Assembly: GCA_021442155.1 (NCBI GenBank)
Contig: CM038214.1
Coordinates: 50,164,703-50,228,702 of the forward strand
Length of the DNA stretch: 64,000 nucleotides
From: Cymbidium sinense
Taxonomy: Eukaryota; Streptophyta; Magnoliopsida; Asparagales; Orchidaceae
Reading direction: 5' to 3'
The notes beneath the pieces are model-generated. The model searched no databases. It was not told the DNA's origin and was given only the letters and a program-made list of their open reading frames with translations. Shown in pieces: positions 2,075 to 48,926 of the stretch. Position 1 is the first letter of the stretch. Each line of letters starts with the position of its first letter. Position numbers and translations under genes: made by a program.

Positions 2075-2554
2075 TTACAAAGAACAAATTCAAATTCAAC
2101 ATTTCTTCTTTTTGATTTCATCAACCAAGTAACACACCAAGTTCTTTAAGACACAAGTGACGACATAGATAAAAAATGAGCACACATCAAGCTAATCAAA
2201 AACCTTAGATAACTAGAACCATCTCAACTATAAAGACATAATTACAAAAGTAGTAGATTGGATCGGCCATTTTTCTATTTCTCTAGTTCCCATCAAAACC
2301 ACGCCTTTCGAGTAGCATGGTCCACCATCATATCCATAATATCTCCCTCCACCACCACCACAGCTTTAACCTTCGTCGGTCCTCCTTCCTCCATAACCAC
2401 CACTACTTTGATCACCATCTTTATATCCACCAACACCTCCAGATCCCCCACCACCACTGTGATAACCCCTGCCATCGCCTTCACCTCCACCGCCATATCT
2501 AGACTGAGCCTGGTTGATGATGATGTTCATGTCATCAAGGTTCTTCCCATTCTT
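2075..2554 (-). pseudogene. Glycine-rich RNA-binding protein 3' fragment, copy 1
   Basis: On - the copy opens NGKNLDDMNIIINQAQSR, which is the end of a plant GR-RBP RRM domain (usual form NGxxLDGRxITVNEAQSR). A Gly-rich tail follows (GGYHSGGGGSGGVGGY type, then GGYGGRR), and then a 3'UTR whose last bases complement the T-rich stretch near 2075. The reading frame holds one internal stop after GRRTDEG, and the terminal GNWRN is shifted out of frame. Everything upstream of NG is missing, so the RNP1 and RNP2 RNA-contact motifs are absent and no binding protein can be made. Both edges are fused to telomere-like repeats. Family assignment is firm; the donor gene is unknown. Confidence 0.8.
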
Positions 2555-5196
2555 GGGGTTTAGGTTTAAGTTTAAGTTTATAAGGTTTTAGGGTTTAGGT
2601 TAATTTTTTAATTTTTTTAGTTACTTTAAGTTTAGGTTTAGGGTTTAGGGTTTAGGTTTAAAGTTTATGGTTTAGGGTTTAGGGTTTAGGGTTTAGGATT
2701 TAGGATTTAGGGTTTAGGGTTAGGGATTTAGGGTTTATATTTTATTTGGGTTAGGTTTAAGTTTAGGTTTAGGAGAGTTTAGTTTAGGTTTTGGTTTAGG
2801 TTTTTTTGGGTTTAGTTTAGAGCAGTAGGTTAGTTTAAGGTTGTTTAGGGTTTATGATTTAGGCTTTAGTCTTTAGGATTTAGGCTTTTAGGTTTAAGGT
2901 TTTTAGGATTTAGGGTTTAGCGTTTAATGTTAGTTTAGAGTTTGGGGGTTTAATTTGAATTTAGGGTTTAGGATTTCAGAGTTTAGGATTAGGGTTTTAG
3001 GTAGGGTTTAGGTTAATAGGGTAGGGTTTAGAATAGGATTTAGGTTTTAGGGTTTATGGCAGTGTTTTAAATAACCCGACAGTTTAGGTTTATTTAGTTT
3101 ATTTTATTATTTTAATTTAATTATTTATTATAGTTTAGTTTATTTTAGTTTATTTTAGATTTGTGTTTAGGTTTATGTTTATTTTTAGTTTATTTTTTAG
3201 GTTTTTTATTTTATTTTTTAGTTTAGGTTTTATATTATTTTTAGCTTTAAGTTTTGGGTTTTATTTTAGGCTTTATTTCTAGGTTTTATTTTTTAGTTAG
3301 GTATATTTTAGTTTATTTTATTTTATTTATTTAGGTTTAAGTTTAGGTTGGGTTATCATTTTAGTTTTGTTTAGTTTATTTAGGTTAATTTTATTTTGGT
3401 TATTTAAGGTTTATGTTTTGTTTTTAGTGGTTTAGGTTTTATTTTATTTATTTTAAGTTTTATTTAGTTTTATTTTATATAGGTTTATTTTAATTTTATT
3501 TTAGTTTGTATTTTATTTTATTTAGATTTATTTTTTAGTTTAATTTTATTTTATTTAGTTTAGGTTTTTTATTTATTTTATTATGGTTTAGTTTTATTTT
3601 TATTTATTTTATTTAGGTTTAGGTTTAGGTTTAGTTTTTAAGTTTTAATTTTATTTAATTTTATTTAGGTTAGGTTTTATTTTTTTTATTTTTTTATTTA
3701 GTTTAGGTTTAGGTTTTAGGTTTAGGGTTTAGGGTTTATGGTTTTAGGGTTTGAGGTTAGGTTTAGGGTTATAATTTGGGTTTAGGTTTAGTTTAGTTTT
3801 TTAGGGTTTAGTAGGTTTAGGGTTTAGTGTTTTAGTATTTAGTTTTTAGTTTAGTTTATTTTAGGGTTTAGAGTTTAGGGTTTAGATTTAGATTTAGGAT
3901 TTTTTTAGGTTTGTGGTTTAGTTTTATTTTAATTAAGTAAACCGATTGGTTTTAGTTTATTTATTTTAGTTAGTTTATTTTATTTCATTTAATTTATTAT
4001 ATATTTTATTTAAGTTTATTTTTTTATTTTTATTTAGTTTTATTTATTTTAGTTTTTTATTTTAGTTTATTTTTTTTATGTTTAGGTTTATGTTTATTTT
4101 ATGTTAATTTTATTTTATTTAGGATTTAGGATTTTAGGTTTAGTTTAGGTTTTATGGTTAGGTTTAGTTTATAATGGTTCAAGGTTTAGGGTTTAGATGG
4201 TTTAGGTTTTTTTTATTTTAATTTTTAAATTAAGTAAATGGTATGTTTAGGTTTTTAGTTTATTTTATTTATTTTAATTTATTTATTTTTTATTTTATTA
4301 AGTTTTTTTTTTTTATTTTTTATTTAGTTTAGTTTATTTAGTTTTATTTTATTTTAGTTTAGTTTTTATTTTAATTTTTTTTTAGATTTAGGTTTATTTT
4401 TAGTGTAGTTTTATTTATTATATTTTAGGTTTATGTTTTATTTTAATTTTAGGTTTAGGTTTAGGTTCTTATTTTATTTGTTTAGGTTTTTAGTTTTATT
4501 TTAAGATTTTTAGGTCTTATTTTTTTAGTTTAGGTTTAGATTTATGTTTATTTTATTTAGGTTTACTTTAGGTTTTATTTATTTTAGTTTAGTTTATTTT
4601 AGTTTAGGTTTAGGTTTAGGTTTATTTTATTTTATTTTAGGTTTAGCCTTTTTTTAATTTAGGGTTTAGGTTTTATTTTATTTATTTTGATTTTACTTTT
4701 GGTTTATTTTTTAGTTTAGGTTTTATATTTTATTTTATTTTTAGGTTTATTTTATTTTATATTTTATTCATTTTATTTTTTTTTTAGTTTAATTAGATTT
4801 TATTTATTTTATTTTAATTTAGTTTATTTTTTTTATTTTATTTTTTTTTCTTAAGTTTAGGTTTAGGTTTAGGTTTAGTTTATTTTTTTATTTTATTTTA
4901 TTTTGGTTTAGGTTTTATTTATTTTATTTTAGGTTTTATTTAGTTTAGGTTTTAGATTTTTAGGGTTTAGGTTTGTTTAGGGTTATTAGGGTTTAGGGTT
5001 TATTGTTTAAGGTTTGGGGTTTAGGGTTTAGGGTTTAGGTTATGGTTTATTTTAGGGTCTAGGGTGGTTTTAGGTTTAATGTTTAGGGTTTTAGGTTTTA
5101 GGGTTTAGGTTTAGGTTTGGGGTTTAGGGTTTAGGGTTTAGTTTTTTAAGTTTAGGTTTAGGGTTTAGTTTTAGTTTAGGGTTTAGGGTTATTGGT
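2555..5196 (+). repeat. Telomere-like array segment with T-rich modules
   Basis: TTTAGGG-type blocks lie at about 2555-3060, 3701-3905, 4131-4215 and 4951-5196. T-rich modules (TTTTA, TTTAGG and TTTATTT words) lie at about 3061-3700, 3931-4130 and 4227-4950. Two modules begin with the anchor (AATTAAGTAAACCGATTGG at 3931; TTAAATTAAGTAAATGG near 4225). The 3061 module has only a decayed version. The sequence just right of copy 1 includes TTATTTAG/TTACTTTAGG-like words that recur right of copies 2, 4, 8 and 9. No gene is seen. Confidence 0.8.
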
Positions 5197-5679
5197 TTTT
5201 CTTTTTTTTTCTTTTTTAATAGAGAACAAATATTGAACATTTTTCTTCTTTTCGATTTCATCAACCAAGTAACACACCATGTTTTCTAAGACACAAGTGA
5301 TGACATAGATAAAAAATGAACACGCATAGAGCAAATAAAAAACCCTAGATAACTAGAGCCATCTCTATTGTAAAGACACAGTTCTATAAGCAGTAGATCG
5401 GATCGATCGTTCTTCAGTTTCTCCAATTCCCAATAAAACCACCCCGGCCTCTTTAGTAGTAGTTCCACCATCATATCCTTGATCTCTTCCTCCGCCACCA
5501 TCATGACTGTAATCTCCGTCACTGCTCTAGCCTCCATAACCATGAATTTTTCGACCACCACTTCCATATCCCGGACCACCACAATGATAACTGCTGCCTC
5601 CGCTTTTACCTCCACTGCAAGATCTAGATTGAGCCTGGTTTACAGTGATGTTCTTGTCTTCAAGGTTCTGCCCATTCTT
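5197..5679 (-). pseudogene. Glycine-rich RNA-binding protein 3' fragment, copy 2
   Basis: Same module as copy 1. The - strand reads NGQNLED, then NQAQSRS, a Gly-rich tail and the 3'UTR. The 3' edge is an A-rich run on - (T-rich at 5197-5218), in the position of a poly(A) tail. Small indels shift the Gly-rich frame, so the longest open stretch over it on - is out of frame and has no biological meaning. Flanked on both sides by TTTAGGG blocks. Confidence 0.8.
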
Positions 5680-6000
5680 AGGGTTTAGATTTAGATTTAG
5701 GTTTAGGTTTATTAGGTTTTAGGGTTAGGTTTATTTTTTAATTTATTTAGTTACTTTAGGTTTAGGTTTAGGGATTAGGGATTTGGGATATGGTTTATGG
5801 TTTAGGGATTAGGATTTAGCATTTAGGGTTTAGGGTTTTAAGGTTTATGCTTTTAGGGTTTAAAGTTTAGGGTTAGGGTTTAGGGTTTAGGGTTTAGGGT
5901 TTTTCAATGTGTAAGGATTAGGGTTTAGGGTTTAGGGTGTTGTCTTTAGGATTTAGGGTTTAGGGTGTTGGTTTTAGGATTTAGGGTTTAGGGTTTAGGG
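5680..6000 (+). repeat. Degenerate TTTAGGG block between copies 2 and 3
   Basis: It contains the shared right flank of the module (TTTATTAGG, then a TTTTTAATTTATTTAG element and TTACTTTAGG) followed by TTTAGGG variants. Copies 2 and 3 are only about 320 bp apart and no T-rich module separates them, so this is a shortened version of the repeating unit. Confidence 0.8.
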
Positions 6001-6440
6001 TTTTTGTTTTTTTTTTAAATTGAACAAATTTAGATTCAACATTCTTCATTTCGATTTCATCAGCCAGGTAACACACCAAATTTTATAAGGCACAAGTGAC
6101 AACATAGACTAAAAATGAGCACACATAGAGCAAATCAAAAATACTAGATAACTAGAACCTTCTCTAATGTAAAGAGATAGTTCCATAAGTGACAGATCTG
6201 ATGGGCCGTTATTCAATTTCTCTAGTTCCCATCAGAACCTCCCTAGCCTCTCTCGTAGTGGGGTCCACCATCAAATATCTCTCTCCCCACTACCACTTGT
6301 AACCTCCTCACTCCTCGCCCATAACCACCACTCACTGAATATCACCTCTCCATATCCATAACCTCCCCTACCTCCTTCAATTCCAGCCAAATCTAGATTG
6401 ATCTGGTTGGATGTTCCCCCACAAGGTTTTGCCCACTCTT
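6001..6440 (-). pseudogene. Glycine-rich RNA-binding protein 3' fragment, copy 3
   Basis: It has the 3'UTR and the 5' edge (- strand GAGTGGGCAAAACCTTG, matching NGQNL) of the same module. The Gly-rich part is scrambled by several deletions and is shorter than in the other copies. It ends directly at a telomere repeat and then the L1 tail. It is one of the most decayed copies. Confidence 0.75.
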
Positions 6441-6442
6441 AG

Positions 6443-8977
6443 GGTTTACATTTTTTAGGGAAAGTTAAAATTTTTTTACCTTAAAAATAAAGGATACAAT
6501 GTCTTTAAAAGGGGTAAAGCTCAAATTTCTACTGCTCACAGAGCTACAAGAAACCTAAAGAGCTAAACCCCTATCTAAGTGCAATGGAAAAAAGAAAATA
6601 AAAGAGCAAAAGCAATGTCATAAAAGCAAATCAAAAAGTACACAAAAAGTACTAATAAAACTTAAGAAAATAGTAAAAGGACTAGTTAACAGTAGTTCTT
6701 GATCCCTTTGAGAAGGAAAGATAACCAAGATTCACATCAATAATACTTGAGTTGGCTGAGTAAAGATCATTCAATCTGTGAAGTTACAACCTAGAAAAGA
6801 AATATGCAAAACACTACAAAGGAAATGGCCATAGCTCAAGGAAAAATGATAAAGTAAACAATTTAGAAAGAGCTGAGAAAGAAAAGGCAGCTCTAAAGAT
6901 CATCTCGGGGCAATACATATAAGCATCCAAAATTCATGAGAAGAGTTACAATTATATGCATGCTACCAACTAGAGAGAAGATATAGGGAAACATCAAGGC
7001 CATCAAAGCTAGTATACCTAATATAATCAACCATCCAAGGAAAAATAGTCCATAGTGATCTAATTCCTAAACCAAAAAATCAAGAAAAATAGCTAGCTAG
7101 CAACCAACTAGCAGCCAACCCACTAACTAAAACCCATAATAGACCAAACACATAAAGACAACATCTCAGAAGTTACAGCAGGGTTAGTGGCTGAGAACAA
7201 CCCACAACTATCTCCAGAGCACTGGCAATCCAAATCCAAGAGAAAAACCAATGTCCAAATAGCAAAATAGTAGAAGATAAGCAGCACCAGAGAGAGGAAA
7301 GTCATATAATAGAGAGACCAAGAGGGCATCTAGAAGTTACCATCAAAACCACCACCAAGGCAGCCAAATGGAAAGCAAATCCACCATCACCAACCAAGAG
7401 GCAAATATCAAGAAACAAAGAGAGCCAACTAAACCGAAGGGAGTCAATACCAACAGCCAACATAAAGCCCAAAACAACCACTAAACAAGCATCCAAGATA
7501 GTAGACATAAAAACCCTCAAGCTTAACCCCTAACAAGTCCTAAAATAAGACCAAAAAAACCATAAGAGCTCATATCCTCCGCCAACAAAATAGCCAATAA
7601 AACCACCCAGGCCACCAGCCAATAGGATGAGTAGTAGGAGAAGTCAGAGCTGCAGGAAAATTGACACACAAACTGGGAAACAAAAATAAAGGAAAAATAG
7701 CTGCACCCAAGAGAGGATAACCAACCCAAGAGCATACCAGAAACCCAACCAAAAGAACCCAACCAAAAGCACCTAAACCAACCATCAAGCATAGGCAACA
7801 CATCCACCCAGCCAACCAACCCAGATAGCCAAAATAGCCAACCAACCTACTTAGCCAACAAAACCAATTAGCAAACATAGCTAATACAAAGCCCAAAAAG
7901 AGGGAAAAGAACAATAACAGACAAAGCCAAAACCCACCTTGAGATCTCTAAATTAACCAAGAAATAAAAATTGTAGTCACCCAACCAAACCAGAAAAGGC
8001 CAAGGAGGACCACCCAACCACAAGCAGCAAAACTATAAAGAAAGGAATAAGGCCAAAGGCAAACAAAACCCCATCCAAATTTTGAAGAGCAGATATTCAC
8101 TACAAGGAGAAAATAGGGAGACAACAAGCACAGAACAACTAACTCCAATTCATAAGGTAGATAGAACCAACCAATAGAAACCTCCAAGTCAAATCATGAA
8201 AGGAGAACCAAGCTAGAAGAAGCCAATAGTATTCATGAAAAAATAAGCGCCCAAAATAGCTAAGCAGATGAGAGAAGAAAATAGCAGCAACTAGCAGAAC
8301 CAACCATAGCATTCACAAATCCCATTCCAAAAAGGCCATAGCCAGCCAAAACTAGAGGAAAACCCAAAATTCATTGGTAAAAAGGGTAGGCCAAAATTCT
8401 ATAGAACCACAACCCAACAGGAGACACAAAGCATAAGCCATAGAAAGAAAACCACCAAGCACAGAGGATAGGAAAACTAATTAAAAATAGCACCACTGAG
8501 ACCCAAAAAATGGATAGGAAAGTATAAAATGGGGTAAAGTTGAAGGGAGCTTAATTATCGAAATAAACTCACCAAAAACAAGTTCTTAGTGAGGGGAGCA
8601 AAAAGTACAACAAAAAATATACTGAATAAAACTACCATAGCAAAAGATTAATAGAAGAACAAAATGTTAAAATTTAAGGTAAGGCAGTTTAGTGTTATCT
8701 GATTGAAGACCATTCAGATGGTATGCTATGTCAAATAGCTAGGAAATCAGCACAAGCATTACTTTCAAAGAATGTGAGAATTTTGTAGCAAACTTGAGAA
8801 AGAAGCTTTTAGTGTGATTAAGAAGATAATAAGTCGATTTCCATTTTATTATTATTATGCATATCAAAAGAAGAGCATCAACTTTAATCCAAATATTATA
8901 TAGGCCTTTGCTTAAATAAATATTAATAGCTTTGTTAACAATAATGAGTTCAGCATAAATAACAAAATAAGCTTTAA
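6443..8977 (-). mobile_element. 5'-truncated L1 LINE (L1-A): RNase H end and 3'UTR
   Basis: The region matches the 3' part of the larger L1 at 49552-58583. Both share an AAGGGGTAAAGCT word near the 3' end, AAACCTAAAGAGCTAAACCCC just inside it, and the end of the RNase H coding region. Orientation is -, with the 3' terminus at about 6457 next to a short T run on +. The 2.2 kb A/C-rich 3' region gives several open frames rich in L, V and W on -; they have no recognisable domain. The 5' end is cut inside RNase H at about 8977. A weak candidate target duplication (GGTTTAcATTTTTTA at 6443, GGTTTAgATTTTTTA at 8978) flanks it, but the background makes chance matches easy. It separates two gene-fragment copies that were otherwise almost adjacent. 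Confidence 0.7.
8668..8977 (-). pseudogene. L1-A RNase H C-terminal remnant
   Basis: The - strand translation shows YAELIIVNKAIN and IWIKVDALLL, the second and third blocks of a plant L1 RNase H (catalytic Glu and Asp). It then shows YYLLNHT and ends LPYLKF-stop, with the stop at 8668-8670. The first Asp block (VNTDGS) is lost to the 5' truncation. The same text is found in L1-B and L1-C. Frameshifts are present and no activity is expected. Confidence 0.65.
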
Positions 8978-8992
8978 GGTTTAGATTTTTTA

Positions 8993-9460
8993 TTTTTTGG
9001 TTTTTTTTTAATAGAAAACAAATTCAGATTCAATATTTCTTCTTTTTGATTTTATCAACCAAGTAACACACCAAGTTTTCTAAGACACAATCGATAATAT
9101 AGATAAAAAAAGAGCACGCATAGAGCAAATCAAAAACCTTAGATAACTAGAACTGTCTCTACTGTAAAAACACCGTTCCATATGAAGTAGATTAGTTTGG
9201 CCATTCTTCACTTTCTCTAGTTCCCATCAGAACCACCTCGGCCTCTTGAGTAGCAGGATCCACCATCATATCCCCGATCTCTCACTCCACCACCACCATG
9301 GTGTAACCTCCATCTCTTTTACCTCCATAACTACCAGTATTAACCACCTCCATATCCACCAGATCCATCCCCTTATGATAATTTCCACCTCTACCTTCAC
9401 CTCCAGGATCAAGACTTAAGTGGTGATGTTTATGTTGCCATCATGGTTTGCCCATCCTGG
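8993..9460 (-). pseudogene. Glycine-rich RNA-binding protein 3' fragment, copy 4
   Basis: Complete-length module on -. The 3'UTR starts after an A-rich edge (T-rich on + to about 9010), and the copy carries the Gly-rich tail and the GNWR-like end. The NGQTM start corresponds to NGQNL. A deletion of part of the NQAQSR segment and several indels break the frame. The right edge is fused to GGGGGTTTAG. Confidence 0.75.
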
Positions 9461-12400
9461 GGGTTTAGTTTATTAGGTTTTAGTTGGTTTATTTTTTAAT
9501 TTATTTAGTTACTTTAGGTTTAGATTTAGGTTTGGGGTTGAGGGTTTAGGTTTAGTGCTTATGGTTTAGGGTTTAGGTGGGTTTTTAAGGGTTTATGCTT
9601 TAGGGTTTAGGTTTATGTAGGGGTTTTAGGTTGGTTTTTTAGGGTTTAGGGTTTAGGGTTTAAGGTTATTTTTTTAAAATTAAGTAAACCGATAAGTTTA
9701 GGTTTATTTACTACATTGAGTTTATTTTTATTCCTTTTAATTTATTTTCTTATTTATTTTTATTTAGGTTTATTTTTTTATTTTTATTTAGTTTAGTTTT
9801 TTTATTTTAAGTTTATTTATTTTTAATTTAGGGTTTTAATTTTAGTTTATTTTTTTAGGTTTAGGTTTAGGTTTAGGTTTATTTTTAAGTTCAATTTTAT
9901 TTTTATTTTATTTTTTAGGTTTAGGTCTTTTTTCTTGTTTTAGGTATATGTTTAGGTTTTAATTTTATTTTTTTAGGTTTTGGTTTGAGGTTTTTATTTT
10001 AGGTTTATTATAGATTTTATTTTTTAGTTTAGGTTTAGGATAATTTTTAGTTTATTTTATTTTATTTAGTTTAGGTTTATGTTTATGTTTAATTTATTTT
10101 AGGTTTAAGTTTAGGTTTTATTTATTTTAGTTTAAGTTTGGTTTATTTTATTTTTATTTTAAGTTTTGGTTTTTTTTAGTTCAAGGTTTAGGTTTTATTC
10201 TTTATTTATGTTTTAGGTTTAGGTTTTTATATAGTTTTTATTTAATTTTATTTTAGGTTTATTTTATTTTTCATTTAATTTCAGTCTTTATTTATTTTAT
10301 TTTTATTTATTTTTACTTTTTTATTTTATTTTATTTTTAGGTTTAGGTTTAGGTTTTAGTTTAGGTCTTTATTTTATTTTATTTTATTATTTTATTTAGG
10401 TTTTGGTTTATTTATTTTTTTATTTTTTTATTTTTTTTAGGTTTTATTTTAGGTTATTTGGGTTTAGGGTTTTAGGGTTTAGGGTTTAGGGTTGAAGATT
10501 AAGGGGTTTAGTATTTTAGGTTTTAGGGTTTAGGGTTTATTTTAGGGTTTAGGTTTAGGGTTTTAGGTTTAGGTTTAGGGTTTAAGGGTTTAGTTTTAGT
10601 TTTAGGTTTAGGTTTAGTTTAGGAGTTTAGGAGTTTAGGTTAGGTTTTAAGTTTAGGGTTAGTTTAAAGTTTAGGAGTTTAGTTTTAGGTTTAGGTTTAT
10701 GGTTTAGAGTTTAAGGTTTAGGTTTAGGTTTAGAGTTTAAGTTAAGGTTTATGATTTAGGGTTTAGGGTTTAGGGTATAAGTTTAATTTAGGCATTAGGA
10801 TTTAGGGTTTTTATAGTTTAGGGTTTAGGTTTAAGGGTTAGTTTAGAGTTTAGGGTTTAGAGATTTAGGGTTTAGGGTATTAGGTTTTGGGTTCTGGGTT
10901 AGAGTTAGGGTTTAGGGTTTAAGGTTTATGGTTTAGTGTTTATGGGGTTTAGGGTTTAAGGTTTAGGGTTGTAGCTTTAGGGTTGTAGGTTTACGGATAG
11001 TTTTAAGGTTTAGGGGTATTTTTTTTAAATTAAGTAAACCAATATGTTTAGGTTTATTTAGTTTACATTGTATATCTTTTATTTATTTAAGTTAATTTTA
11101 TTTTTTATTTTTATTAGGTTTAGTTTATTTATTTTAGGTTTATTTATGTTATTTAGGTTTTTATTTTAGTTTTTTTTAGGTTTCGTTTTAGGTTTAGGTT
11201 TATGTTTATTTTTTTTAGTTTAGTATTATTTTTATTTATATTTTTTGGTTTAGGTTTTATTTTTTATTTTAGATTTAGTTTTAGATTTTTATTTTATTTT
11301 TTTACGTTTAGGTTTTAGGTTTTTATTTAAGGTTTTTTTTAGGTTATTTTTTAGTTTAGGTTTAGGTTTATCTTTGGTTTATTTTATTTTATTTAGTTCA
11401 GGTTTAGGTTTAAGGTTAGTTTATTTTAGGTTTAGGTTTATGTTTAGGTAATATTTATTTTAGATAATGTTTATTTTAGTTTAGGTTTAGGTTTATTTTT
11501 TTATTTTTAGGTTTAGGATTTACTTATAATTTAGGATTTAGGTTTTATTTTGTACTTATTTTTAGGTTTTATTATTAGGTTTATTATTTAGGTTTATGTT
11601 TTTATTTTATTCTATTGTAAGTTTATCTTATTTTTATTTTAAGTTTAATTTATATTTTACTTAAGTTTTTTATTTTTTTTAGTTTAGTTTAGGTTTTTAT
11701 TTATTCTATTTTTAGTTTAATTTTTATTTTTTATTTTATTTTCTTTTTAGGTTTATGTTTAGGTTTAGGTTTAGGTTTAGGTTTTAGTTCATGTTTTTAT
11801 TTTATTTTATTTTATTTATTTTAGTTTGGATTTGATTTTTTGATTTATTTTACTTTTAGGTTTTAACTAGTTTAGGTTTAAGTTTTCAGCTTTTTAGGCT
11901 TTAGGGTTTAGGGTTTAGGGTTTTGGGTTTGTGGTTTGGGGTTTAGGGTTTAAGGTTTATGTTTTTTTTTGTGCTTTAGGGTTTATGGGTTAGGGTTTGG
12001 GGTTTAGGGTTTAGGCTTTAGGGTTTAGGAATTAAGGATTGGGGTTTTATGGTTTAGGTTTAGGGTTTAGTTTTTAGGGTTTAGGGTTTAGGGTTTAGGG
12101 TTTATGGTTTAGGTTTTAGGTTTAGGGTTCAGGTTTTAGTTTAGGACTTAGGGTTTTAACACATTTTATTTTATTTATTTATTTTATTTTTATTTTATTT
12201 ATTTATTTATTTTTTTTATTTTTTTATTTATTTTTTTTTATTTTATTTTTTTAGTTTAGGTTTTATTTTATTTTTAGGGTTAGGTTTAGGTTTTTATTTT
12301 ATTTTTTCTAGATTAGGTTTTAGGTTTTTATTTTAGGTTTAATTTTAGGTTTTATTTTTTAGCTTAGATTTATGTTTATTTTTAGTTTATTTTATTTTAT

Positions 12401-14072: not shown

Positions 14073-14293
14073 GTTTTTATTTTTTTTAAATAGAGAACAA
14101 ATTTAGATTCAACATTTCTTCTTTTTGATTTCATCAACCAAGTAACACACCATGTTTTGTAAGACACAAACGATGACATAGATAAAAATTGAGCATGCAT
14201 AGAGCACATCAAAAACCCTAGATAACTAAAACTGTCTCTACTGTAAAAACACAAGTCCATAAGCAGTTCATCAGGTCAGCCATTCTTCAATTT
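14073..14293 (-). pseudogene. Glycine-rich RNA-binding protein fragment, copy 5 (3'UTR only)
   Basis: Only the 3'UTR part of the module is present. It begins at the usual A-rich edge and stops at about 14293, right where the coding part (GNWRN) should begin, and joins the last third of a T-rich module. An open frame of 72 codons on - here is read through the UTR and should not be taken as a protein. Confidence 0.75.
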
Positions 14294-16123: not shown

Positions 16124-16138
16124 TATTATTATTATTAT

Positions 16139-16211
<73 letters not shown>
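16124..16211. repeat. TAT/TA microsatellite
   Basis: A short TTA run passes into an uninterrupted TA repeat of roughly 33 units. It sits inside a T-rich module, where other copies have TTTTA words. It is likely to be polymorphic. Confidence 0.9.
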
Positions 16212-16213
<2 letters not shown>

Positions 16214-38957: not shown

Positions 38958-39135
38958 GGTCAACCGTGACACATGCTAGGAGAAGCTGAAAGCTGAGCAA
39001 AGCCATCAAAATGGAATCCCCACTTAAAATGTACACAGGAAAAGCCAAAAGGAGATGCGCCTCCACACAAGAATTGGAATTTGCCAGAGCAACCAAAAAA
39101 ATGGAGGAGAGAGAAGATGCTCAAACAATTTGAAT

Positions 39136-42100
39136 TGTGGTTTAAGTTCAGTTCGTGTTCAAGTTTAGGTTTTAGTTTAGTGTTTAGAGTTTTTGGTTTT
39201 AGGGTTTAGGGCTTAGGGTTAGTTAGGATTTAGGTTTTAGGGTTAGTTTAGGGTTTAGGGTTTAGGGTTTTTTTTTAATTAAGTAAACTTGTAGGTTTTA
39301 CTTTATTTAGTTTATTTAGTTTATTATTTATTTATTTATTTTAGTTTATTTTATTTTTTATTTTTATTCAGGTTTATGTTTTATTTTTATTTAGTTTAGT
39401 TTATTTATTTTAGTTTAAATATTTTATTTTAGTTTATTTTTTGGGTTAAGGTTTAGTTATGTTTATTTTTATTTTAGTTTTAGTTTTATTTATTTCTTTT
39501 AGGTTTTGTTTTTATTTTAGGTTTATTTTAGGTTTTATTTTTTAGTTTATTTTATTTTATTTATTTTAGGGTTTTAGGTTTAGTTTATTTTAGGTTTTAT
39601 TTATTTTAGTTTAGTTTATTTTATTTTTTTAGTATAGGTTTATGTTTATTTTATATAGTTTATTAGGTTTAGAATTTTATTTAGTTTAGGGTTTTTTATT
39701 TTTAGGTTTATTTTTAGGTTTAGGTTTTATTTAGTTCTTATTTTTTTATTTTAGGTATCATTTATTTTATTTTACATTTAGGTTTTATTTTATTTAGGTT
39801 TTATTTTTATTTTATTTAATTTAATTTAGTTTATTTTTATTTTAGTTTAGTTTTATTTTATTTAATTTAATTTAGGTTTAGGTTTAGGTTTTAGTTTAGC
39901 TTTTATTTTATTTTAGTTTTAATTTTATATAGGTCATTATTTATTTATTTTATTTTTTATATTTAGTTTAGTTTATGTTAAGTTTTAGTTTTTGTGGTAA
40001 GTTTTTGGTTCAAGGTAGGGTAGGTTTAGGATTTAGGGTTTAGGGTTTAGGGTTTAGGTCATGGGTTTATGGTTTAGTGGTTTGTGATTTAGATTTAGGG
40101 TTTAGGGTTATAGGTTTAGGGTTTAGGGTTAGTTTTAGTGTTTAGGATTTAGGGTTAGGGTTTTTTTTATTTTTAATTAGGATTTAAGGTTTAGGGTTTA
40201 AGATTTTTTAGGGTTTAGGATTTGGGGGCCCAGTGATCTAGGCCTTCAGGGCCCAGGGCCTAGGGCCCAGGCTCGCATCATTATGGCCCAAAGCTCCAAC
40301 CTTTTAATCACAAAACATGCATGCCTAGGCTCATTTAGTATCTTTATATCCATCTTTATTTTATCTTTTTATCTTCCTAGGCTTATTTATCTTCCAGTCA
40401 GGATTTTATCTTGCCTATTACCTTTATTTTATTTTAATCTTTTTTTCAGTTTAGGTTTATGCTTTATATTTCTTTAATTTAATCTGATTTTATTTTATTT
40501 TTTTAGATTAGTTTTATTTTTTATTTTTTTAGCTTAGGTTTATTTATTTTATGTTTTTTGTGCTTTTTATTATTATAGTTTTATTTTTAGGTTTTATTTT
40601 TTAGTTTAGGTTTAGGTTTATTTTTAGTTTATTTTATTTTATCTAGTTTAGATTTAGGTTTAGTTTACTTTAGGTTTAGTTCTATGTTTTATTTATTTTA
40701 GTTTAGTTCATTTTAGTTTAGGTTTAGGTTTATTTTATTATTATTTTAGGTTTAGTTTTTTTTTAAGTTTTGGGTTTATTTTTTCTTTTTTCTTTTTTAT
40801 TTCTTATTTTTTAGTTTTATTTTAATATTTATTTATTAGGTTTAGGTTTTTATTTAGTTTTCATTTTATTTTATTTTAGGTTTAATTTATTTTTATAATA
40901 GGTTTAGTTTTTGTTTTATTTAGTTTTTTTTTATTTTTAGGCTTATTTTATTTTTTTAGTTTAGTTTAGGTTTTATTTATTTTATTTTAGTTTAGTTTTT
41001 ATTTTTTTTATTTTATTTTTAGGTTTAGGTTAAGATTATTATTTTATTTTTTTAGGTTTAGGTATTAGGTTTATATTTTAGCTTTATTTTTAGGTTTTAT
41101 TTTTTAGTTTAGGTTTAGGTTTATTTTTAGTTTATTTTATATTTTTTAGTTTAGAGTTCAGGTTTAGTTTATTTTAGGTTAAGGTTTAGGTTATATTTAT
41201 TTTAGTTTAGGTTTAGGTTTCTGTTAGTTTAGGGTTTAGGTTTTATTTATTTTTTATTTTAAGGTTTTATTTTAAGTTTATTGTTTAGGTTTAAGTTTTT
41301 ATTTAATTTTTAATTTATTTTATTTTAGGTTTATATTTTTTTAGGGTTTAGGGTTTAGGGTTTGTTTATGGTTTAGGGTTTAGGGGATAAGGTTTAGGGT
41401 TTAGGGTTGTAGGTTTAAGGTTTAAGTTTTAGGGTTTGTTTTAGAGTTTAGGGTATAAAGTTTTATTTTAAAAAAGAAAATAAAGTAAACAGATATGTTT
41501 AGGTTTTGTAATTAATTTAGTTTATTTTTTCTTTATTTTAGTTTACTTTATTTTTTATTTTTTATTTTTATTTAGATTTATTTTTTACTTTTATTTAATT
41601 TAGTTTATTTATTTTAAGTTTATTTATTTAATTTAGGTTTTTTCTTTTAGTTTATTTTTTAGGTTTAGGTTTAGGTTTAAGTTTATCTTTTATTTTTAGT
41701 TTTATTTTTATTTTCTTTTTTTAGGTTTAGGTTTTATTTTTTTATTTCTATGTTTAGGTTTAGGTTTTATTTATTTTGGTTTAGTTTATTTTAGTATACA
41801 TTTAGGTTTATTTTATTTTATTTATTTTAGGTTTAGTTTTTTTTTAATTTAGAGTTTAGATTTTATTTGTAGGTTTATTCTATTCTTATTTTACATTAAC
41901 GTTTTATTTTATTTAGGTTTTTTAATTTTTAGATTTATTTTATTTTTTAGTTTAGATTAGGTTTTTATTTATTTTATTTTATTTTAGTTTTTAATATTTA
42001 TTTTATTTTATTTTTAGTTTTAGTTTTATGTTTAGGTTTTTATTTTATTTAGATTTAAGTTTATTTATTTATTTTATTTTTATGTTTTATTTAATTTAGG

Positions 42101-43349
42101 TTTAGGTTTTAAGAGTTTAAGGTTAAGGGTTTAGGGTTTAGGGTTAGGGATAAGGTTTAGGGTTTAGGGGTTAGGGGTTAGGGTTTAGGGCTTAGATGTC
42201 AGGGCTTAGGGTTTAGGGTTTTGGGGTTTAGGGTTTAGGGTTTAGGGTTTAGGGTTAGAATTTTTTTATTATTTCATTATTTTTTAAAAATTAAGTAAAC
42301 TAGTTGGTTCAGTTTTATTTAGTTTTTTTTATCTATTTTAGTTTAGTTTATTTTTTATTTTGATTTAGGTTCATTTTTATTTTTTATTAAGTTTAGTTTA
42401 TTTATTTTAGATTTATTTATTCTAGATTAGGTTTTTTATTTTCTATTATTTTTTAGGTCAACCTTTAGGTTTATGTTTAATTTTTAGTTTAGTTTTACTT
42501 TTATCTTATTTTTTAAGTTAGGATTTATTTTTGATCTTTAGGTTTAGGTTTAGGTTTTTATTTTATTTTTTGGGTTAAGGTTTTAGGTTTTTATTTTAGT
42601 TTTTATTTTTAGTTTAGGTTTAGGTTTAGGTTTATTTTTATTTTCTTTTATTTTATTTAGTTTAGGTTTAGGTTTATGTTTAGTTTATTTTAGGTTTAGG
42701 TTTAGGTTTTATTTATTTTAATTTAGTTTATTTAAGTTTAGGTTTATTTTTATTTTTTTGTTATTTTAGGTTTAGTTTTTTTTTTTACTTTAGCGTTTAA
42801 GTTTTATTATTTATTTATTTTTAGGTTTATTATTTAGATTAAGGTTTTTATTTAGTTTTTAATTTTTTTTATTTTAGGTTTATTTTTTTATTATATTTAA
42901 GTTTTTTATTTTTTAATTTAGTTTAGGTTTTTATTTATTTTATTTTTGTTTAGTTTTTGTTTTGTTTTTTATTTTTTTTGTAGGTTTAGGTTTAGGTTTA
43001 GGTTTTGGTTTTGGCTTTAGTTTATGTTTTTATTTTATTTTATTTTTTAATTTTTTTTCTTATTTTGGCTTTTATTTATTTTAATTTAAGGTTTTATTTA
43101 GTTTATGTTTAGGTTTTTAACTTTGTAGGGTTTAGGGTTTAGGGTTTAGCATTTAGTGTTAGTTTAGGGTTAAGGGTTTACAGTTTATGGTTTAGGGTTT
43201 AGGGTTTAGGGTATAGGGTTTACGGTTTAGGGTTTAGGTTTTAAGGTTTAGGATTTAGGATTTAGGGTTTTAGGGTTTAGGGTTTCGGGTTTAGGGATTA
43301 GGGTTTAAGTTTTAGGTTTAGGGTTCAGGTTTTAGTGTAGGGTTTAGGG
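39136..43349 (+). repeat. Telomere-like array segment with T-rich modules
   Basis: TTTAGGG blocks lie at about 39136-39270, 39991-40210, 41341-41460, 42111-42270 and 43121-43349. T-rich modules lie at 39271-39990, 40411-41340 (no anchor), 41461-42110 and 42271-43120. Anchors: TTAATTAAGTAAACTTGTAGG (about 39277), TAAAGTAAACAGATATG (41481) and TTAAGTAAACTAGTTGG (42291). The end carries the left flank of the gene fragment (GGTTCAGGTTTTAGTGTAGG). No gene is seen. An open frame of 64 codons at 40283-40477 lies in the C-bearing patch and is low-complexity. Confidence 0.8.
40212..40410 (+). repeat. C-bearing patch: GGGCCCAGG-type variant of the array
   Basis: GGGCCCAGGGCCTAGGGCCC stands where TTTAGGG would be expected. 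C-bearing T-rich text follows (TTATCTTCCTAGGCTTATTT) and matches the T-rich module if C is read as T. The change is in the direction T to C on + (A to G on the C-rich strand). Confidence 0.65.
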
Positions 43350-43834
43350 TTTTTTTTAGTAAAGAACAAATTCAGAATCATTATTTCTTCTTTTTGATTT
43401 CATCAACCAAGTAAAACACCAAGTATTCTAAGACACAAACGATGACATAGATAAAAAATAAGCACGCATAGAGCAAATCAAAATCCCTAGATAACTAGAA
43501 CCATCTCTATTATAAAGACACAGTTCCATAAGGAGTAGATCAGATCAGCTGTTCTTCAGTTTCTCCAATTCCCATCAAAAGGCCTCTCAAATAGCGGGAT
43601 CCATCATCATATCCTAGATCTCTACCTCAGACACCACCAAGGCTATAACCTCTGTCGCTCCTCCCGCTTCCATAATTACCACTACTCCGAGCACCACCTC
43701 CATATCCACGAGCGCCTCTAGATTCACCATCACCACTAGGATAACTGCCGCCTCCGCCTTTGCCTCCATCGCCAGATCTAGACTGAGCCTACTTGACAGT
43801 GATGTTCTTGCCATCAATGTTCTACCCAATCTTA
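43350..43834 (-). pseudogene. Glycine-rich RNA-binding protein 3' fragment, copy 10
   Basis: On - it reads NIDGKNITVK, then a TAG stop before AQSRSGDGGKGGGGSY. GARGYGGGARSSGNYGSGRR follows, then a shift and a stop. About ten bases are missing just before the GNWRN end. The stop sits at the same codon as in copies 7 and 13. The right flank jumps directly into the second half of a T-rich module (type B junction). Confidence 0.8.
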
Positions 43835-45642
43835 GGGTTTAGGTTTAGGTCTATTAGGTTTTATGGTTTAGGTTTTATTTTGTATTTTTATTTTTAGGTT
43901 TTATTTTTAGGTTTATTTTTTAGGTTTAAGTTCTTATTTAGTTTTTATTTTATTTTATTTTAAGTTTATTTTAGGTATATTTTATTTAAGTTTTTATTCT
44001 TAGGTTTATATTATTTTTTATTTTAGGTATATTTTATTTAAGTTTTTATTCTTAGGTTTTTAATTATTTTATTTTAGTTTATTTTATTTTATTTTTAGGT
44101 TTAGATTTACGCTTTAGTTTATGTTTTTATTTAAATTTACTTCTTATTTTATTTAGGTTTAGGTTTCTTTATTTATTTTATTTATTGGTTTTATTTAGTT
44201 TAAGTTTAGGTTTTTAGGCTTTAGGCTTTGGGGTTTAGTGGAGAGTGGGTTTAGGGTTTTAGGTGTGTAGGTTAGGGCTTAGGGTTTAGGGTTTAGAATT
44301 TATTATTTAGCTTTAGGTCAGGGTTTGGGTGGGAGAAAGGTTACTGAGGTCAGAGTTTAGAGGTTTAGGAGTTTAGGAGTTTAGGTTTAGGGTTTAGGAT
44401 TTAGGGTCTTTCTGGGTTTAGGCCATGGGTTAGGAGTTTAGGGTTAGGGTTTAAGTGGGTTAGAGGGAGTTTAAGGGTTAGGTTTAGGGTTTAGTTTAGG
44501 TTTAGGTTTAGGTTTAGGGTTTAGGGTTTAGGTTTAGGTTTAGGTTTAGGGTTTAGGGTTTAAGGTTTAGGTTTAGGTTAGGGTTTTTTTATTTGTTTAT
44601 TTTTATTTTTTTATTTTTTTAAAATTGAGTAAACTTGTACATTTAGAATTATTTAGTTTTTTTTACTTTAGTTTATTTTATCTTTTATTTTTATTTAGGT
44701 TTATTTTTTTATTTAGTTTAGTTTATTTATTTTAGGTTTATTTATTTTAGATTAGGTTTTTATTTCAGTTTATTTTTCTAGGTTTAGGTTTAGGTTGATG
44801 TTTATTTTTTTAATTTAGTATTATTTTTTTAATTTTTTAGGTTTTGGTTTTATTTTTTATTTTTAGGTTTAAGTTTAGATTTTATTTTATTTTTTTAGGT
44901 TCAGGTTTTTGTTTTGATTTTTTAGTTTAGGTTTTTATTAATTTTCTATTTATTTTATTTTTTTTAGTTTAGTTTTATGTTTAGGTTTAGGTTTAGCTTA
45001 TTTTAGGTTTATGTTTAGGTTTTCTTTATTTTAATTTAGTTTATTTTAGTTTAGGTTTTGGTTTATTTTATTTTTTTAGGTTTAGGTTTTTTGTTAGTTT
45101 AGGTTTTATTTTTTATTTATTTTTAGGTTCATTTTTTAGGTTTAGGTTTTTATTTAGTTATTATTTTATTTTATTTCAGGTTTATTTTAATTTTATTTTA
45201 GATTTAGTTTTTATTTTATTTAGGTTTTTATTTTTTTGGTTTAGTTTAGGCTTTTATTTATTTTATTTTATTTTAGTTATAATTTTTTATTTTATTTTCT
45301 TTTTAGGTTTTGGTTTAGGTTTTGGTTTTTGTTTATATTTTTATTTTATTTTATTTTTTATTTTATTCTACTTTAGGTTATTTATTTATTTTATTTTAAG
45401 GTTTTATTTAGTTTATGTTTAGGTTTGTGGTTTAGAGTTTCGAGATAGTTTAGGGTGTAGGGTTAGGATTTATGGTTTATGGTTTAGGGTTTAGGGTTTA
45501 AGGTTTAGGGTTTAAGGTTTAGGTTTTAAGTTTTAGGGTTTAGGGTTTAGGGTTTTAGTGTTTAGGGTTTAGGATTTAGGGTTTAGGGTTTAGGTTTTAC
45601 GTTTAAGGTTCAGGTTTTAGTTTAAGGTTTTTTGTTTTTGGT
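43835..45642 (+). repeat. Array segment with type B junction and mixed block
   Basis: T-rich sequence from the second half of the module (43860-44210) follows copy 10. A direct repeat of about 60 bp, TTATTTAAGTTTTTATTCTTAG and neighbours, is duplicated at about 43975-44060. Mixed TTTAGGG and TTTAGGAG text (44221-44590) follows, then a full T-rich module (44591-45425, anchor AAAATTGAGTAAACTTGTAC at 44621) and TTTAGGG to 45642. Confidence 0.75.
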
Positions 45643-46131
45643 TTCTTTAACAAAGAACAAATTCAGATTCAATATTTCTTCTTTTTGATTTCATCAACCA
45701 AGTAAAATACTAAGTTTTCTAAGACACAAGCGACGACGTAGATATAAAATGACCACACATAGAGCAAATCAAAATCCCTAGATAACTAGAATCGTCTCTA
45801 TTATAAAGACACAGTTCCATAAGCAGCATATCAGATCAGTCGTTCTTCAGTTTCTCCAATTCCCATCAGAACCACCCCGGATAGTCGAGTAACAGAATCC
45901 ACAATCATATCCCAGATCTCTCCCTCTGCCACTACCATGGTTGTAACCTCCGTCGCTCCTACCACTTCCATAACCACCACTGCTCTGACTACCACCTCCA
46001 TATCCATCATCACATCTAGATCCCCCACCACCACTACGATAACCATAGCCTCCACCTTTGCCTCCACTGCAAGATCTAGACTGAGCCTTGTTGATGGTGA
46101 TGTTGCTGCCATCAAGCTTCTACCCATTCTT
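45643..46131 (-). pseudogene. Glycine-rich RNA-binding protein 3' fragment, copy 11
   Basis: On - it reads KLDGSNITINKAQSRSCSGG, KGGGYGYRSGGGGSRCDDGY, GGGSQSSGGYGSGRSDGGYN and HGSGRGRSGI. A one- or two-base shift follows, after which the alternate frame gives RGGSDGNWRN-stop. The terminal peptide is intact in sequence but out of frame. The UTR and edges are complete. It shares the type B right junction with copies 10, 12 and 13. Confidence 0.85.
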
Positions 46132-46927
46132 AGGGTTTAGGTTTATTAGGTTTTTGGGTTTAGGTTTTTTAATTTATTTATTTTTAGCTTCTATTTTTAG
46201 GTTTATTTTTTAGGTTTATATTTTTATTTAGTTTTTATTTTATTTTACTTTTGGTTTTTTAGGTTTATTTAATTTTTATTTTACATTTTATGTTTATTTT
46301 ATTTAGGTTTTCTTATTCTTGGGTTTTCTTTTAATTTTTTAGTTTAGTTTAGGTTATTATTTATTTTATTATTATTTATTTTTATTAATTTAATTTATTT
46401 TATTTTTTGGTTTACTTTTAGGTTTTATTTTATGTTATTATTTTATTTTATATTTTTATTTATTTAGGTTTATGTTTTTTTATTTATTTTTTAGGTTTTA
46501 TTTAGTTTAGGTTTAGGTTTTTTAGGGTTTAGGGTTTAGGGTTTATAGTTTATGGATTAGGGTTTTAGGGTTTAAGATTATAGGGTTTAGTGTTTAAGGT
46601 TAGGGTTTAGGGTTTAGGGTTTAATGTTTAGGCTTTAAGGTTTAGGGTTTTAGGATTTAGGGTTTATGGTTTAGGGTCAACTTAGGGTGTAGGGTTAGTT
46701 TAGGATTTAGGGTTTAAAGTTTAAGGTTTAGGGTTTTTAGGGTTTAGAGTTTAGGGTTTAGGGTTAGGGTTAGGGGTTTGTGGTTAGGGTTTATGGTTTA
46801 GGGTTTTGGGTTTTAGGTTTAGGGTTTAGGTATTAGGGTTTTAAGGTTTAGGGTTTAGGGTTTTTATGGTTTAGGGTATAGGTTTTATGTTTAGGGTTCA
46901 AGTTTTAGTTCAGGGTTTAGGGTTTTT
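46132..46927 (+). repeat. Type B T-rich piece and TTTAGGG block
   Basis: The second half of a T-rich module (46132-46510) is followed by dense TTTAGGG variants (46511-46927). The block ends in the conserved left flank GGTTCAAGTTTTAGTTCAGG. No gene is seen. Confidence 0.8.
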
Positions 46928-47412
46928 GGTTTTTTTTTTAACAGAGAAAAAAATTCAAATTTAAAATTTCTTCTTTCAATTTCACCAACTATGTAACACA
47001 CCAAGTTTTCAATGACACAAGTGATGACATAAATAAAAAATGAGCATGCTTAGAGAAAATCAAAAACCTAGATAAAAAGAACAATCTCTACTATAAAGAC
47101 ACAATTCCATAAGCAACGGATCGAATCAACCATTCTTCACTTTCTCTAGTTCCCATCAGAACCACCCTGACCTCTCGAGTAGTGGGATCCACCATCATAT
47201 CTCGATCTCTCCTCCGCCACCACCACGACTATATCCTCAGTCACTCCTCCTGCTTCCATAACCACCACTACTCTGACCACTACGTCCATATCCATTAGCA
47301 ACTTTAGATCCCCCACCACCACTGCGATAACTGCCACCTCTGCATCCACCGCTAGATCTAGACTGAGCTTGGTTGACGGTGTTGTTTTTACAGTCAAGGT
47401 TCTGCCCATTCA
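46928..47412 (-). pseudogene. Glycine-rich RNA-binding protein 3' fragment, copy 12
   Basis: Full-length module. On - the start reads MNGQNLDC and keeps the ATG that is lost in other copies, because TTCATAGGG follows at the junction. NQAQSR-like text follows (CAA in place of the stop codon of copies 7, 10 and 13). The tail is frameshifted, and GGSDGN is seen near the end. The 3'UTR is well preserved, with an A-rich edge at 46928-46945. Confidence 0.8.
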
Positions 47413-48431
47413 TAGGGTTTAGGTTTAGGTTTTGGTTTATTAGGCTTTTGGGTTTTGATTTTATTTTTTATTTATTTTTAGGTTAGTTTTTTAGGTTTAA
47501 GCTTTTATTTAATTTTTATTTTATTTTATTTTAAGATTATTTTATTTTCAGTTTACATTTAGTTTTTATTTTATTTAGGTAATTTATTCTTACATTTATT
47601 TTATTTATTTAGTTCACTTTAGGCTTTTATTTATTTTATTTTAGTTTATTTTATTTTAATTTTAGGGTTAGGTTTAGGTTTTAATTTATGTTTTTATTTT
47701 ATTTTATTATTTTATTTTATTTAGGTTTACATTTTTTTATTTTATTTTAGGTTATATTTAGATTAGGAGTATATGTAGGTTTAAAGCGATTTAGGGTTTA
47801 GGGTTTAGGGTGAGGGTGGGGTTCAGGTTTAGGGCCCAGTTTAATGTTTAGGCCTGTGGGTTTAGGTCAACAGGGTGCAAACTTAGTTTAGGTTTAGCAT
47901 TTAAGTTTAAGGTTTTTGTGGTCCCAGTTCAGTGGGAGTCAGTGGCCCAGGATCAGGGTTTGCACAGGGCGCAGGGTTTAGGGTCAGGTGCCATGATTTA
48001 GGTTTAGGGCACAGGTTTGAGCCCTGGTGGGGTCAGGGCCCAGGTGTTTAGGGTTTATAGTCATGGTTAGTATAGTCACTAAAGTGACAGTGGTAGAGGG
48101 TCAAGAGGCCCAGTTTAGGTTTAGGTTTAGGGTAGGTTTAGTTTAGGGTTATGATTAGTATCATGAGTGGTTAAGGGCCTGGAGGTTTAGTTAGGTTTAA
48201 GATAGGAGTGAGAGGTTAGGAAGTTTAGGGAGGGTTTAAAGAAGGATTAAAGGTTTAGTGGTTTAGTTTAGTTTTGGGGTAGGTTTAGGTTAGGAGGGTT
48301 TAGGGTTTAGGGTTTTGGATTTAGGGTTTAGGGTTTAGGTTTTAGGGTTTAGGATTTAGGGTTTAGGGTTTTTAGGGTTTAGGGTTTAGGTTTTAAGTTT
48401 TGGGTTCAGGTTTACTTTAGGGTTTAGGGTT
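47413..48431 (+). repeat. Type B T-rich piece, C-bearing patch and TTTAGGG block
   Basis: The T-rich second half-module (47430-47760) is followed by a patch with GGGCCCAG, CAGTGGGAGTCAGTGGCCCAG and AGGGCCCAGG words (about 47790-48120). AGGAGTTTAGG-type text and TTTAGGG repeats follow, then the left flank of copy 13 (GGGTTCAGGTTTACTTTAGG). Confidence 0.75.
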
Positions 48432-48926
48432 TTTTAGTTTTTTTAATAAAAAATAAATTTAGATTCAATGTTTCATCTTTTGGATTTCATCAACCAAGTA
48501 ACACCTCAAGTTTTTAAAGACACATGCAATGACATAGATAAAAAATGAGCACGCATAGAACAAATCAAAAACCATAGATAACTAGAACCGTCTTTACTAT
48601 AAAGACAGTTCCATATGCAGCAGATCAGATTGATTGTTCTTCAGCTTCTCCAGTTCCCATCAGAACCACCTCAGCTTCTCAAGCAGTGGGATCCACCATC
48701 ATATCCCCGATCTCTCCCTTCGCCACCACCATGGTTGTAAGCTTCGTTGCTCCACCTACTTCCATAGCCACCACAGCTCCAACCATCGCCTCCATATCCA
48801 TAAGCACCTCAAGATTCCCCACCACTACTGTGATAACTGTGGCCTCCGCCTTCGCCTCCACCGCTTGATCTAGACTGAGCCTAGTTGACGATGATGTTCC
48901 TATAGTGAAGGTTCTGCCCATTATTA
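48432..48926 (-). pseudogene. Glycine-rich RNA-binding protein 3' fragment, copy 13
   Basis: On - it reads NGQNLHYRNIIVN, a TAG stop, then AQSRSSGGGEGGGHSYHSSG. Two further stops interrupt the Gly-rich part, and it ends in frame GGSDGNWRS-stop. Frame is kept over almost the whole length (few indels), so this copy and copy 7 are the best templates for aligning the others. Right junction is type B. Confidence 0.85.

What the first reader, a model, noticed from the sequence alone, without database searches (positions are those of the whole stretch)
2075..48926. A 5'-truncated glycine-rich RNA-binding protein mRNA end is a repeating unit of a telomere-like satellite
Thirteen copies of the same roughly 480 bp segment (2075, 5197, 6001, 8993, 14073, 17742, 27855, 29070, 31138, 43350, 45643, 46928, 48432) are embedded in TTTAGGG-type DNA. 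All are on -, and those reaching the coding part start at the same point of the gene (NGxNLDG). The - strand shows the end of the RRM, the Gly-rich tail, GNWRN-stop, the 3'UTR and an A-rich edge. Flanks are shared: GGTTCAGGTTTTAGTTTAGG on the left of at least eight copies, including one place (12127) where the fragment itself is absent. One capture followed by amplification explains this better than repeated insertion. I know of no described satellite of this composition, but I cannot search for one.
Basis: partly seen in the sequence, partly recalled or inferred. Interest (0 to 1): 0.88.

Follow-up and report, generated by a model that had tools for sequence, protein, structure and literature searches.

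The report
mRNA fossil amplified inside telomere-like DNA
In a plant genome, probably an orchid's, the tail end of a messenger RNA for a glycine-rich RNA-binding protein was apparently copied once into telomere-like repeat DNA, multiplied together with its surroundings, and has since decayed as silent DNA.

Summary
Thirteen pieces of one ~480-bp segment lie in T/G-rich, TTTAGGG-like DNA, all coding on the minus strand. The segment runs from the end of the RRM through the Gly-rich tail, GNWRN-stop and a ~200-nt 3'UTR to an A-run beside telomere-like repeat. All 11 copies that reach the coding part share one 5' breakpoint; all 11 carry stop codons. Codon positions changed equally (0.151/0.154/0.154, p = 0.97), so the copies diverged neutrally from one ancestor rather than from several genes. 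C-to-T changes follow CG and CHG over CHH on both strands, as in methylated plant heterochromatin. Flanks are co-amplified, right flanks clearly, left ones less so. Spacing is irregular: a module of a complex array, not a regular satellite monomer. The donor groups with orchid GR-RBPs among those fetched (98/92). The intron test is uninformative, since the fragment probably lies in one exon. Best account: one 5'-truncated retrocopy in telomere-like DNA, amplified in a short burst. A new composite of known ingredients, moderately interesting.

The parts
2066..2571 (-). GR-RBP 3' fragment, copy 1 (right flank type A, typed by eye); hit runs slightly into the flank
   Evidence: E 6.5e-93
5212..5693 (-). 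GR-RBP 3' fragment, copy 2 (type A)
   Evidence: E 1.2e-80
6011..6448 (-). GR-RBP 3' fragment, copy 3; right flank cut by an L1-type insertion at about 6456
9001..9468 (-). GR-RBP 3' fragment, copy 4 (type A); left flank cut by the same insertion
14082..14293 (-). copy 5, 3'UTR part only; joined to T-rich DNA
17743..17810 (-). copy 6, last ~65 nt only; interrupted by a large insertion
27853..28361 (-). copy 7 (query copy); right flank is plain telomere-like array
29074..29446 (-). copy 8, many internal deletions (type A)
31139..31622 (-). copy 9 (type A, degenerate)
43348..43848 (-). copy 10 (right flank type B, T-rich)
45641..46145 (-). copy 11 (type B)
46932..47429 (-). copy 12 (type B)
48438..48940 (-). 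copy 13 (type B)
12126..12165 (+). left-flank motif with ~10 nt of module end, rest missing: probable deletion remnant (by eye)
39157..39215 (+). left flank joined directly to telomere-like repeat (GGTTTT|AGGG): candidate empty or deleted site (by eye)
41902..43357 (+). example of T-rich DNA plus an AAGTAAAC block plus telomere-like array, aligning end to end with 14292-15742 (77%, 1098 bits)
1930..6440 (+). telomere-like array segment 1 (TTTAGGG-type, C-poor + strand)
8985..17790 (+). telomere-like array segment 2
27420..31900 (+). telomere-like array segment 3
39111..49553 (+). telomere-like array segment 4

Best explanation
A polyadenylated GR-RBP mRNA of the host lineage was reverse-transcribed once into a TTTAGGG-like tract. 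A ...TTT-3' end on the G-rich strand would have primed on the poly(A) tail; copying stopped within the RRM codons, and the cDNA end was joined to AGGG. This gives the order seen on the + strand: telomere-like DNA, T-run, antisense 3'UTR and tail, then AGGGTTTAGG. The retrocopy, with neighbouring telomere-like and T-rich DNA, was then multiplied in a short burst by ordinary satellite processes (unequal exchange, or circle-based reinsertion). Since then the copies have decayed independently as methylated, unselected DNA with little homogenisation. Shown: one 5' breakpoint, the A-run at the 3' boundary, one orientation, neutral decay, shared flanks, a methylation-like spectrum, a star-like tree. 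Inferred: the RNA intermediate, L1-type machinery, methylation itself, the route of amplification, and a burst rather than steady spread.
For: One 5' end in 11 of 11 and an A-rich end next to telomere-like repeat in 13 of 13. Codon-position changes 144/955, 147/952, 147/953 over 11 copies. C>T on the two strands: CG 0.31/0.27, CHG 0.25/0.26, CHH 0.105/0.087. End branches 0.09-0.25 against inner branches of 0.03 or less. Right flanks alike in 9 of 10 copies tested, 8 beyond 300/300 background. Left flanks collinear beyond order-6 Markov controls in two pairs of copies: 43348 with 14082, 1696 bits over 4434 columns against a best of 1194 in 12 controls; 45641 with 5212, 691 against 475. Array DNA 41902-43357 against 14292-15742: 1098 bits against 542, best of 20 controls. 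The orientation is what priming from TTT on the G-strand predicts, and the 3' parts of the three L1-type insertions in the array lie on the same strand (two by Pfam domains; one by similarity).
Against: No target-site duplication can be recognised for the fragment in a repetitive target. The A-run is short (about 6-10, interrupted in one copy). Intron loss cannot be tested, so DNA-level capture of an exon piece is not excluded. Left flanks are only modestly shared over 62 nt: 5 of 13 at or below 1/300 background, seven at 3-26/300, copy 9001 not at all (L1 lies there); for some copies this window also takes in part of the T-run. The right flank of the 27853 copy is not shared (199/300). In the third pair (832 against 649 bits) the best match lay about 2 kb away from copy 17743, so it shows repeated array DNA, not a shared flank. 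The UTR changed less (256/2132, 0.120) than the coding part, probably for its base make-up; not tested. No donor gene or second locus was available.
Confidence: 0.8

Rival explanations
1. Repeated independent retropositions of the same mRNA into telomere-like DNA, with a preferred reverse-transcription stop giving the same 5' end.
For: Same orientation; L1-type elements do insert here in the same orientation.
Against: Sequence outside the module is shared. No third-position excess, which copies taken over time from a selected gene should show. Exact shared breakpoint in 11 of 11.
Confidence: 0.06
2. DNA-level capture: a last-exon fragment with its 3'UTR was moved by break repair into telomere-like DNA, without an RNA step, and then amplified.
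For: The fragment probably lies in one exon, so lack of introns proves nothing; no target-site duplication is visible.
Against: The 3' boundary is an A-run exactly at the switch to telomere-like DNA, 198 nt after the stop, as a poly(A) tail would be.
Confidence: 0.15
3. Capture happened at a chromosome end: the telomeric G-overhang itself primed on the mRNA poly(A), telomerase then re-seeded TTTAGGG on the cDNA end, and the tract later became interstitial.
For: Polarity (A-run proximal, 5' end distal along the G-strand) is that expected; the 5' junction CCCATTCTT|AGGGTTTAGG runs straight into TTTAGG repeats. RNA-derived sequence beside interstitial telomeric repeats has precedent as TERC-ITS loci in mouse and horse (PMC7215372, passages).
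Against: Internal nick priming gives the same anatomy; a candidate internal empty site exists near 39,157; no evidence that this locus was ever terminal.
Confidence: 0.12
4. Assembly or base-calling artefact of telomere-like DNA.
For: Nanopore base-callers are known to miscall telomeric repeats (recalled); a C-rich island at 40290-40560 differs from its relatives mainly by C for T.
Against: The 11 longer copies differ by K2P 0.17-0.38 with a cytosine-context signature on both strands, not a pattern of random error or duplicated contigs.
Confidence: 0.02

Closest known systems
Interstitial telomeric-like repeats (ITRs) of plants, including Mb-sized pericentromeric blocks in Cycas (PMC9827991: abstract, passages, first parts of Results and Discussion; PMC8621592: passages and section '9. 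Origin of ITRs')
   Same: Long, degenerate TTTAGGG-type DNA, methylated in Cycas; eccDNA/rolling-circle amplification is proposed in the review
   Different: The parts read describe heptamer variants (TTCAGGG etc.); here TTCAGGG is rare (4 against 406 TTTAGGG), and a gene-derived module and a T-rich block are part of the array
[quoted passage not shown] 2005; only its reference entry in PMC8621592 was seen)
   Same: By its title, AT-rich repeat DNA with telomere motifs
   Different: Unknown; paper not read
5'-truncated processed retropseudogenes made by L1-type machinery (general knowledge)
   Same: 3'-end-biased, A-run at the 3' end, 5' truncation
   Different: Sits in telomere-like DNA and was amplified as a module of the array
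TERC-ITS loci of mouse and horse (PMC7215372, passages)
   Same: RNA-derived sequence retrotranscribed next to interstitial telomeric repeats
   Different: There the RNA is telomerase RNA and the loci are single insertions; here an mRNA, and the product was amplified

Membership tests
Processed retropseudogene (L1-type) | poly(A)-like run at the 3' boundary | tested here: met
   13 of 13 copies end in an A-rich run beside telomere-like DNA
Processed retropseudogene (L1-type) | 5' truncation, 3'-end-biased copy | tested here: met
   11 of 11 begin within the RRM, one breakpoint
Processed retropseudogene (L1-type) | absence of donor introns | tested here: inconclusive
   fragment probably lies wholly downstream of the intron
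Processed retropseudogene (L1-type) | target-site duplication | tested here: inconclusive
   repetitive target hides it (looked for by eye)
Interstitial telomeric-like repeat | TTTAGGG-type repeat arrays | tested here: met
   406 TTTAGGG and 505 TTTAGGT heptamers in the four array segments
Interstitial telomeric-like repeat | non-terminal chromosome position | not testable with these tools
   no chromosome context; the own-genome search did not complete (six requests)
Satellite DNA with a regular monomer | head-to-tail monomers of constant length | tested here: not met
   module starts 799-5081 bp apart in nine adjacent pairs (coordinates); right flanks of two types
Functional GR-RBP gene | intact RRM and reading frame | tested here: not met
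   11 of 11 lack most of the RRM and carry in-frame stops when translated, several with frameshifts
GR-RBP (as origin of the sequence) | sequence kinship to plant GR-RBPs | tested here: met
   43 hits at E<=1e-3; 77 of 93 residues identical to a Dendrobium GR-RBP, best of 144 fetched; clade with Dendrobium and Phalaenopsis 98/92 among 30 chosen rows. Pfam found no family in the 93-aa piece

The most novel reading that the evidence does not exclude
A cellular mRNA was reverse-transcribed directly onto a telomeric G-strand end, telomerase resumed on the cDNA, and the resulting chimaera seeded an amplified interstitial array: a mirror of Drosophila-type telomere retrotransposition (recalled), using an ordinary host mRNA in a plant.
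Probability: 0.12. Interest if true: 0.8.

Novelty: new variant of a known kind. Interest (0 to 1): 0.48.

Why it matters
Telomere-like arrays are hard to date or trace because every unit looks alike. A gene-derived module with a recognisable ancestral reading frame is a built-in marker: it points to one capture, lets the later mutation spectrum be read directly (cytosine-context-dependent, alike on both strands), and could time the amplification once host and rate are known. It also makes testable whether retroposition into telomere-like DNA is locked to one strand, as this module and the three L1-type insertions suggest.

Tried and rejected
Independent captures from several genes: rejected, no codon-position bias and shared flanks. 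Congruent flank and module trees: undecided; no branch starred, bootstrap not settled, flank types no better sorted than shuffled labels (type A 356 of 500 shuffles as low, type B 242 of 500), AU test for type B as one clade p = 0.19. Strand-specific C-to-T conversion as the cause of the C-poor + strand: not acting on the modules since insertion, as C>T is alike on both strands. Gymnosperm or Cycas origin: considered because of the Cycas paper, dropped because TTCAGGG is rare, the donor groups with orchids, and the three best hits of the RTE endonuclease are Apostasia, an orchid, at 67-70%. Host identity remains inference: the protein searches listed only part of their hits (120 of 3859, 120 of 430), and I chose the tree rows. 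Pfam gave no family for the 93-aa piece; the PDB search gave one weak match, 18 residues of a GR-RBP RRM, E 0.21. Two ORFs of the insertion at 17811-27420 and one of L1ii had no Pfam hit. Literature: none of 5.39 million papers held all four terms glycine-rich RNA-binding + telomeric repeat + satellite DNA + retrotransposon. The other nine searches showed no title or abstract start of this composition, but several lists were capped (20 of 40, 10 of 12, 10 of 14, 8 of 492, 15 of 395). Absence from that library is not absence in print. The window's own genome could not be searched: six identical requests did not complete.
Full report
What is there. The window is plant nuclear DNA by its content, read in full. 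Four stretches (about 1930-6440, 8985-17790, 27420-31900, 39111-49553) are T/G-rich with 4-10% C on the + strand and hold 406 TTTAGGG and 505 TTTAGGT heptamers. Within them lie 13 copies of a GR-RBP fragment, all coding on the minus strand. A second recurrent part is a T-rich block that begins AATTAAGTAAAC and runs, by eye, for about 0.8 kb: 15 such sites lie in the array (up to 2 mismatches), of which the first ~420 nt of 14 were aligned (the site at 15747 was left out). Other DNA interrupts the array: L1-type LINEs at about 6456-8978, 31890-39110 and from 49553 (RT or RNase H domains on the minus strand in the last two; the first by similarity to the third); an RTE-type LINE inside the third (endonuclease match just under Pfam's cut-off, RT above it; the type name is recalled); a large insertion at about 17811-27420 that looks gypsy-like by eye but whose two tested ORFs had no Pfam hit; and copia-like DNA at the right end (RVT_2).

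The fragment. The 13-row alignment shows one 5' end, CCCTAA|GAATGGG, in 11 of 11 copies that reach it. The consensus reads NGQNLDDKNITINQAQSRS...GSDGNWRN-stop, then 198 nt of 3'UTR, then an A-run that meets telomere-like sequence. All 11 longer copies carry stops. Their mean pairwise K2P is 0.278 (0.17-0.38).

One ancestor. Against the consensus of these 11, the three codon positions changed at 0.151, 0.154 and 0.154 (144/955, 147/952, 147/953; chi-square p = 0.97) and the UTR at 0.120 (256/2132). Copies taken repeatedly from a selected gene family should show a third-position excess. The lower UTR rate is not explained by selection on codons; base make-up is the likely cause, untested. The truncated copies (14082, 17743) were left out of these counts and of the tree. 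The tree is star-like: end branches 0.09-0.25, inner branches 0.03 or less, none strongly supported, bootstrap not settled. A few shared states, such as an AAG/CAG site shared by the copies at 2066, 27853, 29074 and 31139, hint at sub-families.

Flanks. The 75 nt to the right are alike in 9 of 10 copies tested: 8 beat all 300 background windows, one was matched by 7 of 300, and the 27853 copy was not alike (199/300). Copies 6011, 14082 and 17743 were left out because their right side is cut. Left flanks (62 nt) are weaker: 5 of 13 at or below 1/300, seven at 3 to 26 of 300, and copy 9001 at 290/300 because an L1 lies there; for some copies that window includes part of the T-run. Longer left flanks were compared for three chosen pairs, with 12 order-6 Markov controls each. 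Two run close to the module on both sides: 43348 with 14082 (1696 against a best of 1194 bits, 4434 columns) and 45641 with 5212 (691 against 475). The third (832 against 649) matched array DNA about 2 kb away from copy 17743 and so shows only that the array DNA is itself repeated, as does 41902-43357 against 14292-15742 (1098 against 542 bits, 20 controls). Flank types A (five copies) and B (four), assigned by eye, do not sort on the copy tree, and holding B together is not rejected (AU p = 0.19). The motif GTTCA[AG]GTTT lies near 6 of 13 copies, but 8 of its 14 occurrences are elsewhere.

Decay. C>T changes at CG, CHG and CHH sites are 44/141, 53/213, 39/371 on the mRNA strand and 38/140, 64/249, 110/1266 on the other: the pattern expected of CG and CHG methylation, alike on both strands. 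So the strong C shortage of the array's + strand was not produced by strand-biased C loss after the modules arrived.

Host and donor. No organism is given. Among 144 fetched GR-RBPs compared over the fragment, the best is Dendrobium chrysotoxum (77 of 93 identical), second Phalaenopsis equestris (74). In a tree with these two and 27 other relatives chosen by me, the consensus groups with the two orchids, 98/92 (simpler model than the tool's default, and the consensus has an unusual letter make-up). The RTE endonuclease ORF has Apostasia, also an orchid, as its three best hits at 67-70%. An orchid host is therefore likely but inferred.

Mechanism. The array's G-strand offers ...TTT ends that can prime on poly(A); the C-strand does not. 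That predicts the orientation seen. The three L1-type insertions have their 3' parts on the same strand. The first shows, by eye and without a chance control, a 14/15 duplication GGTTTA(C/G)ATTTTTTA; the third has a 14-T run at its left edge and an inverted part (57076-58554) like twin priming; the second shows no clear A-run. Three of three in one orientation is suggestive only. The intron test fails as evidence: 6 of 147 GR-RBP sequences were flagged for unusual residues before INDRETGRSRG, of which P0019, P0030, P0033 and P0036 look like models that miss or read into an intron edge there, upstream of the fragment; P0018 looks frameshifted and P0257 is normal.

Known relatives. The plant ITR papers describe heptamer variants and propose eccDNA-type amplification (PMC9827991 and PMC8621592, parts read as listed). 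Passages of a loblolly pine survey (PMC3762812) report TTTAGGG arrays and mention telomere-like blocks, with no gene module in the passages shown. RNA-derived DNA beside interstitial telomeric repeats is known as TERC-ITS (PMC7215372, passages). I found no paper describing a GR-RBP module in such an array (other listings as told under tried and rejected).

Verdict. The feature is real, and single capture plus co-amplification is the best account (0.8). It combines known processes in a form I have not seen described; it is a useful marker rather than a new kind of system. No date is given, because neither host nor rate is known.

Noticed in passing
49553-58554: Third L1-type element: T14 run on the left, an RTE-type element nested at about 51040-54130, and a part (57076-58554) inverted relative to the L1 at 31890-39110, like twin priming.
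   Followed up: partly
6456-8978: L1-type piece inserted between two fragment copies with a 14/15 duplication GGTTTA(C/G)ATTTTTTA (by eye, no chance control); without it the two copies would lie about 30 bp apart (junctions).
   Followed up: partly
40290-40560: C-rich island aligning to the T-rich block whose mismatches are mostly C for T (24 of at least 51), unlike a neighbouring stretch (2 of at least 42; only the eight commonest types were printed). Similar GC-rich patches by eye at 17520-17700 and 47810-48240. An older, less C-depleted version, or base-calling error?
   Followed up: partly
3930-45420: T-rich blocks beginning TTTTTTAATTAAGTAAAC: on the minus strand their 3' end also looks like an A-run abutting telomere-like repeat, so they may be a second retroposed module.
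   Followed up: no
1-1930: Almost C-free (1.5%) TTA/TTAG-type simple repeat DNA left of the telomere-like array.
   Followed up: no
53146-53982: RTE-type LINE endonuclease ORF (279 aa), 67-70% identical to Apostasia proteins, with an unnamed 83% relative (P0063) over 67% of its length.
   Followed up: no
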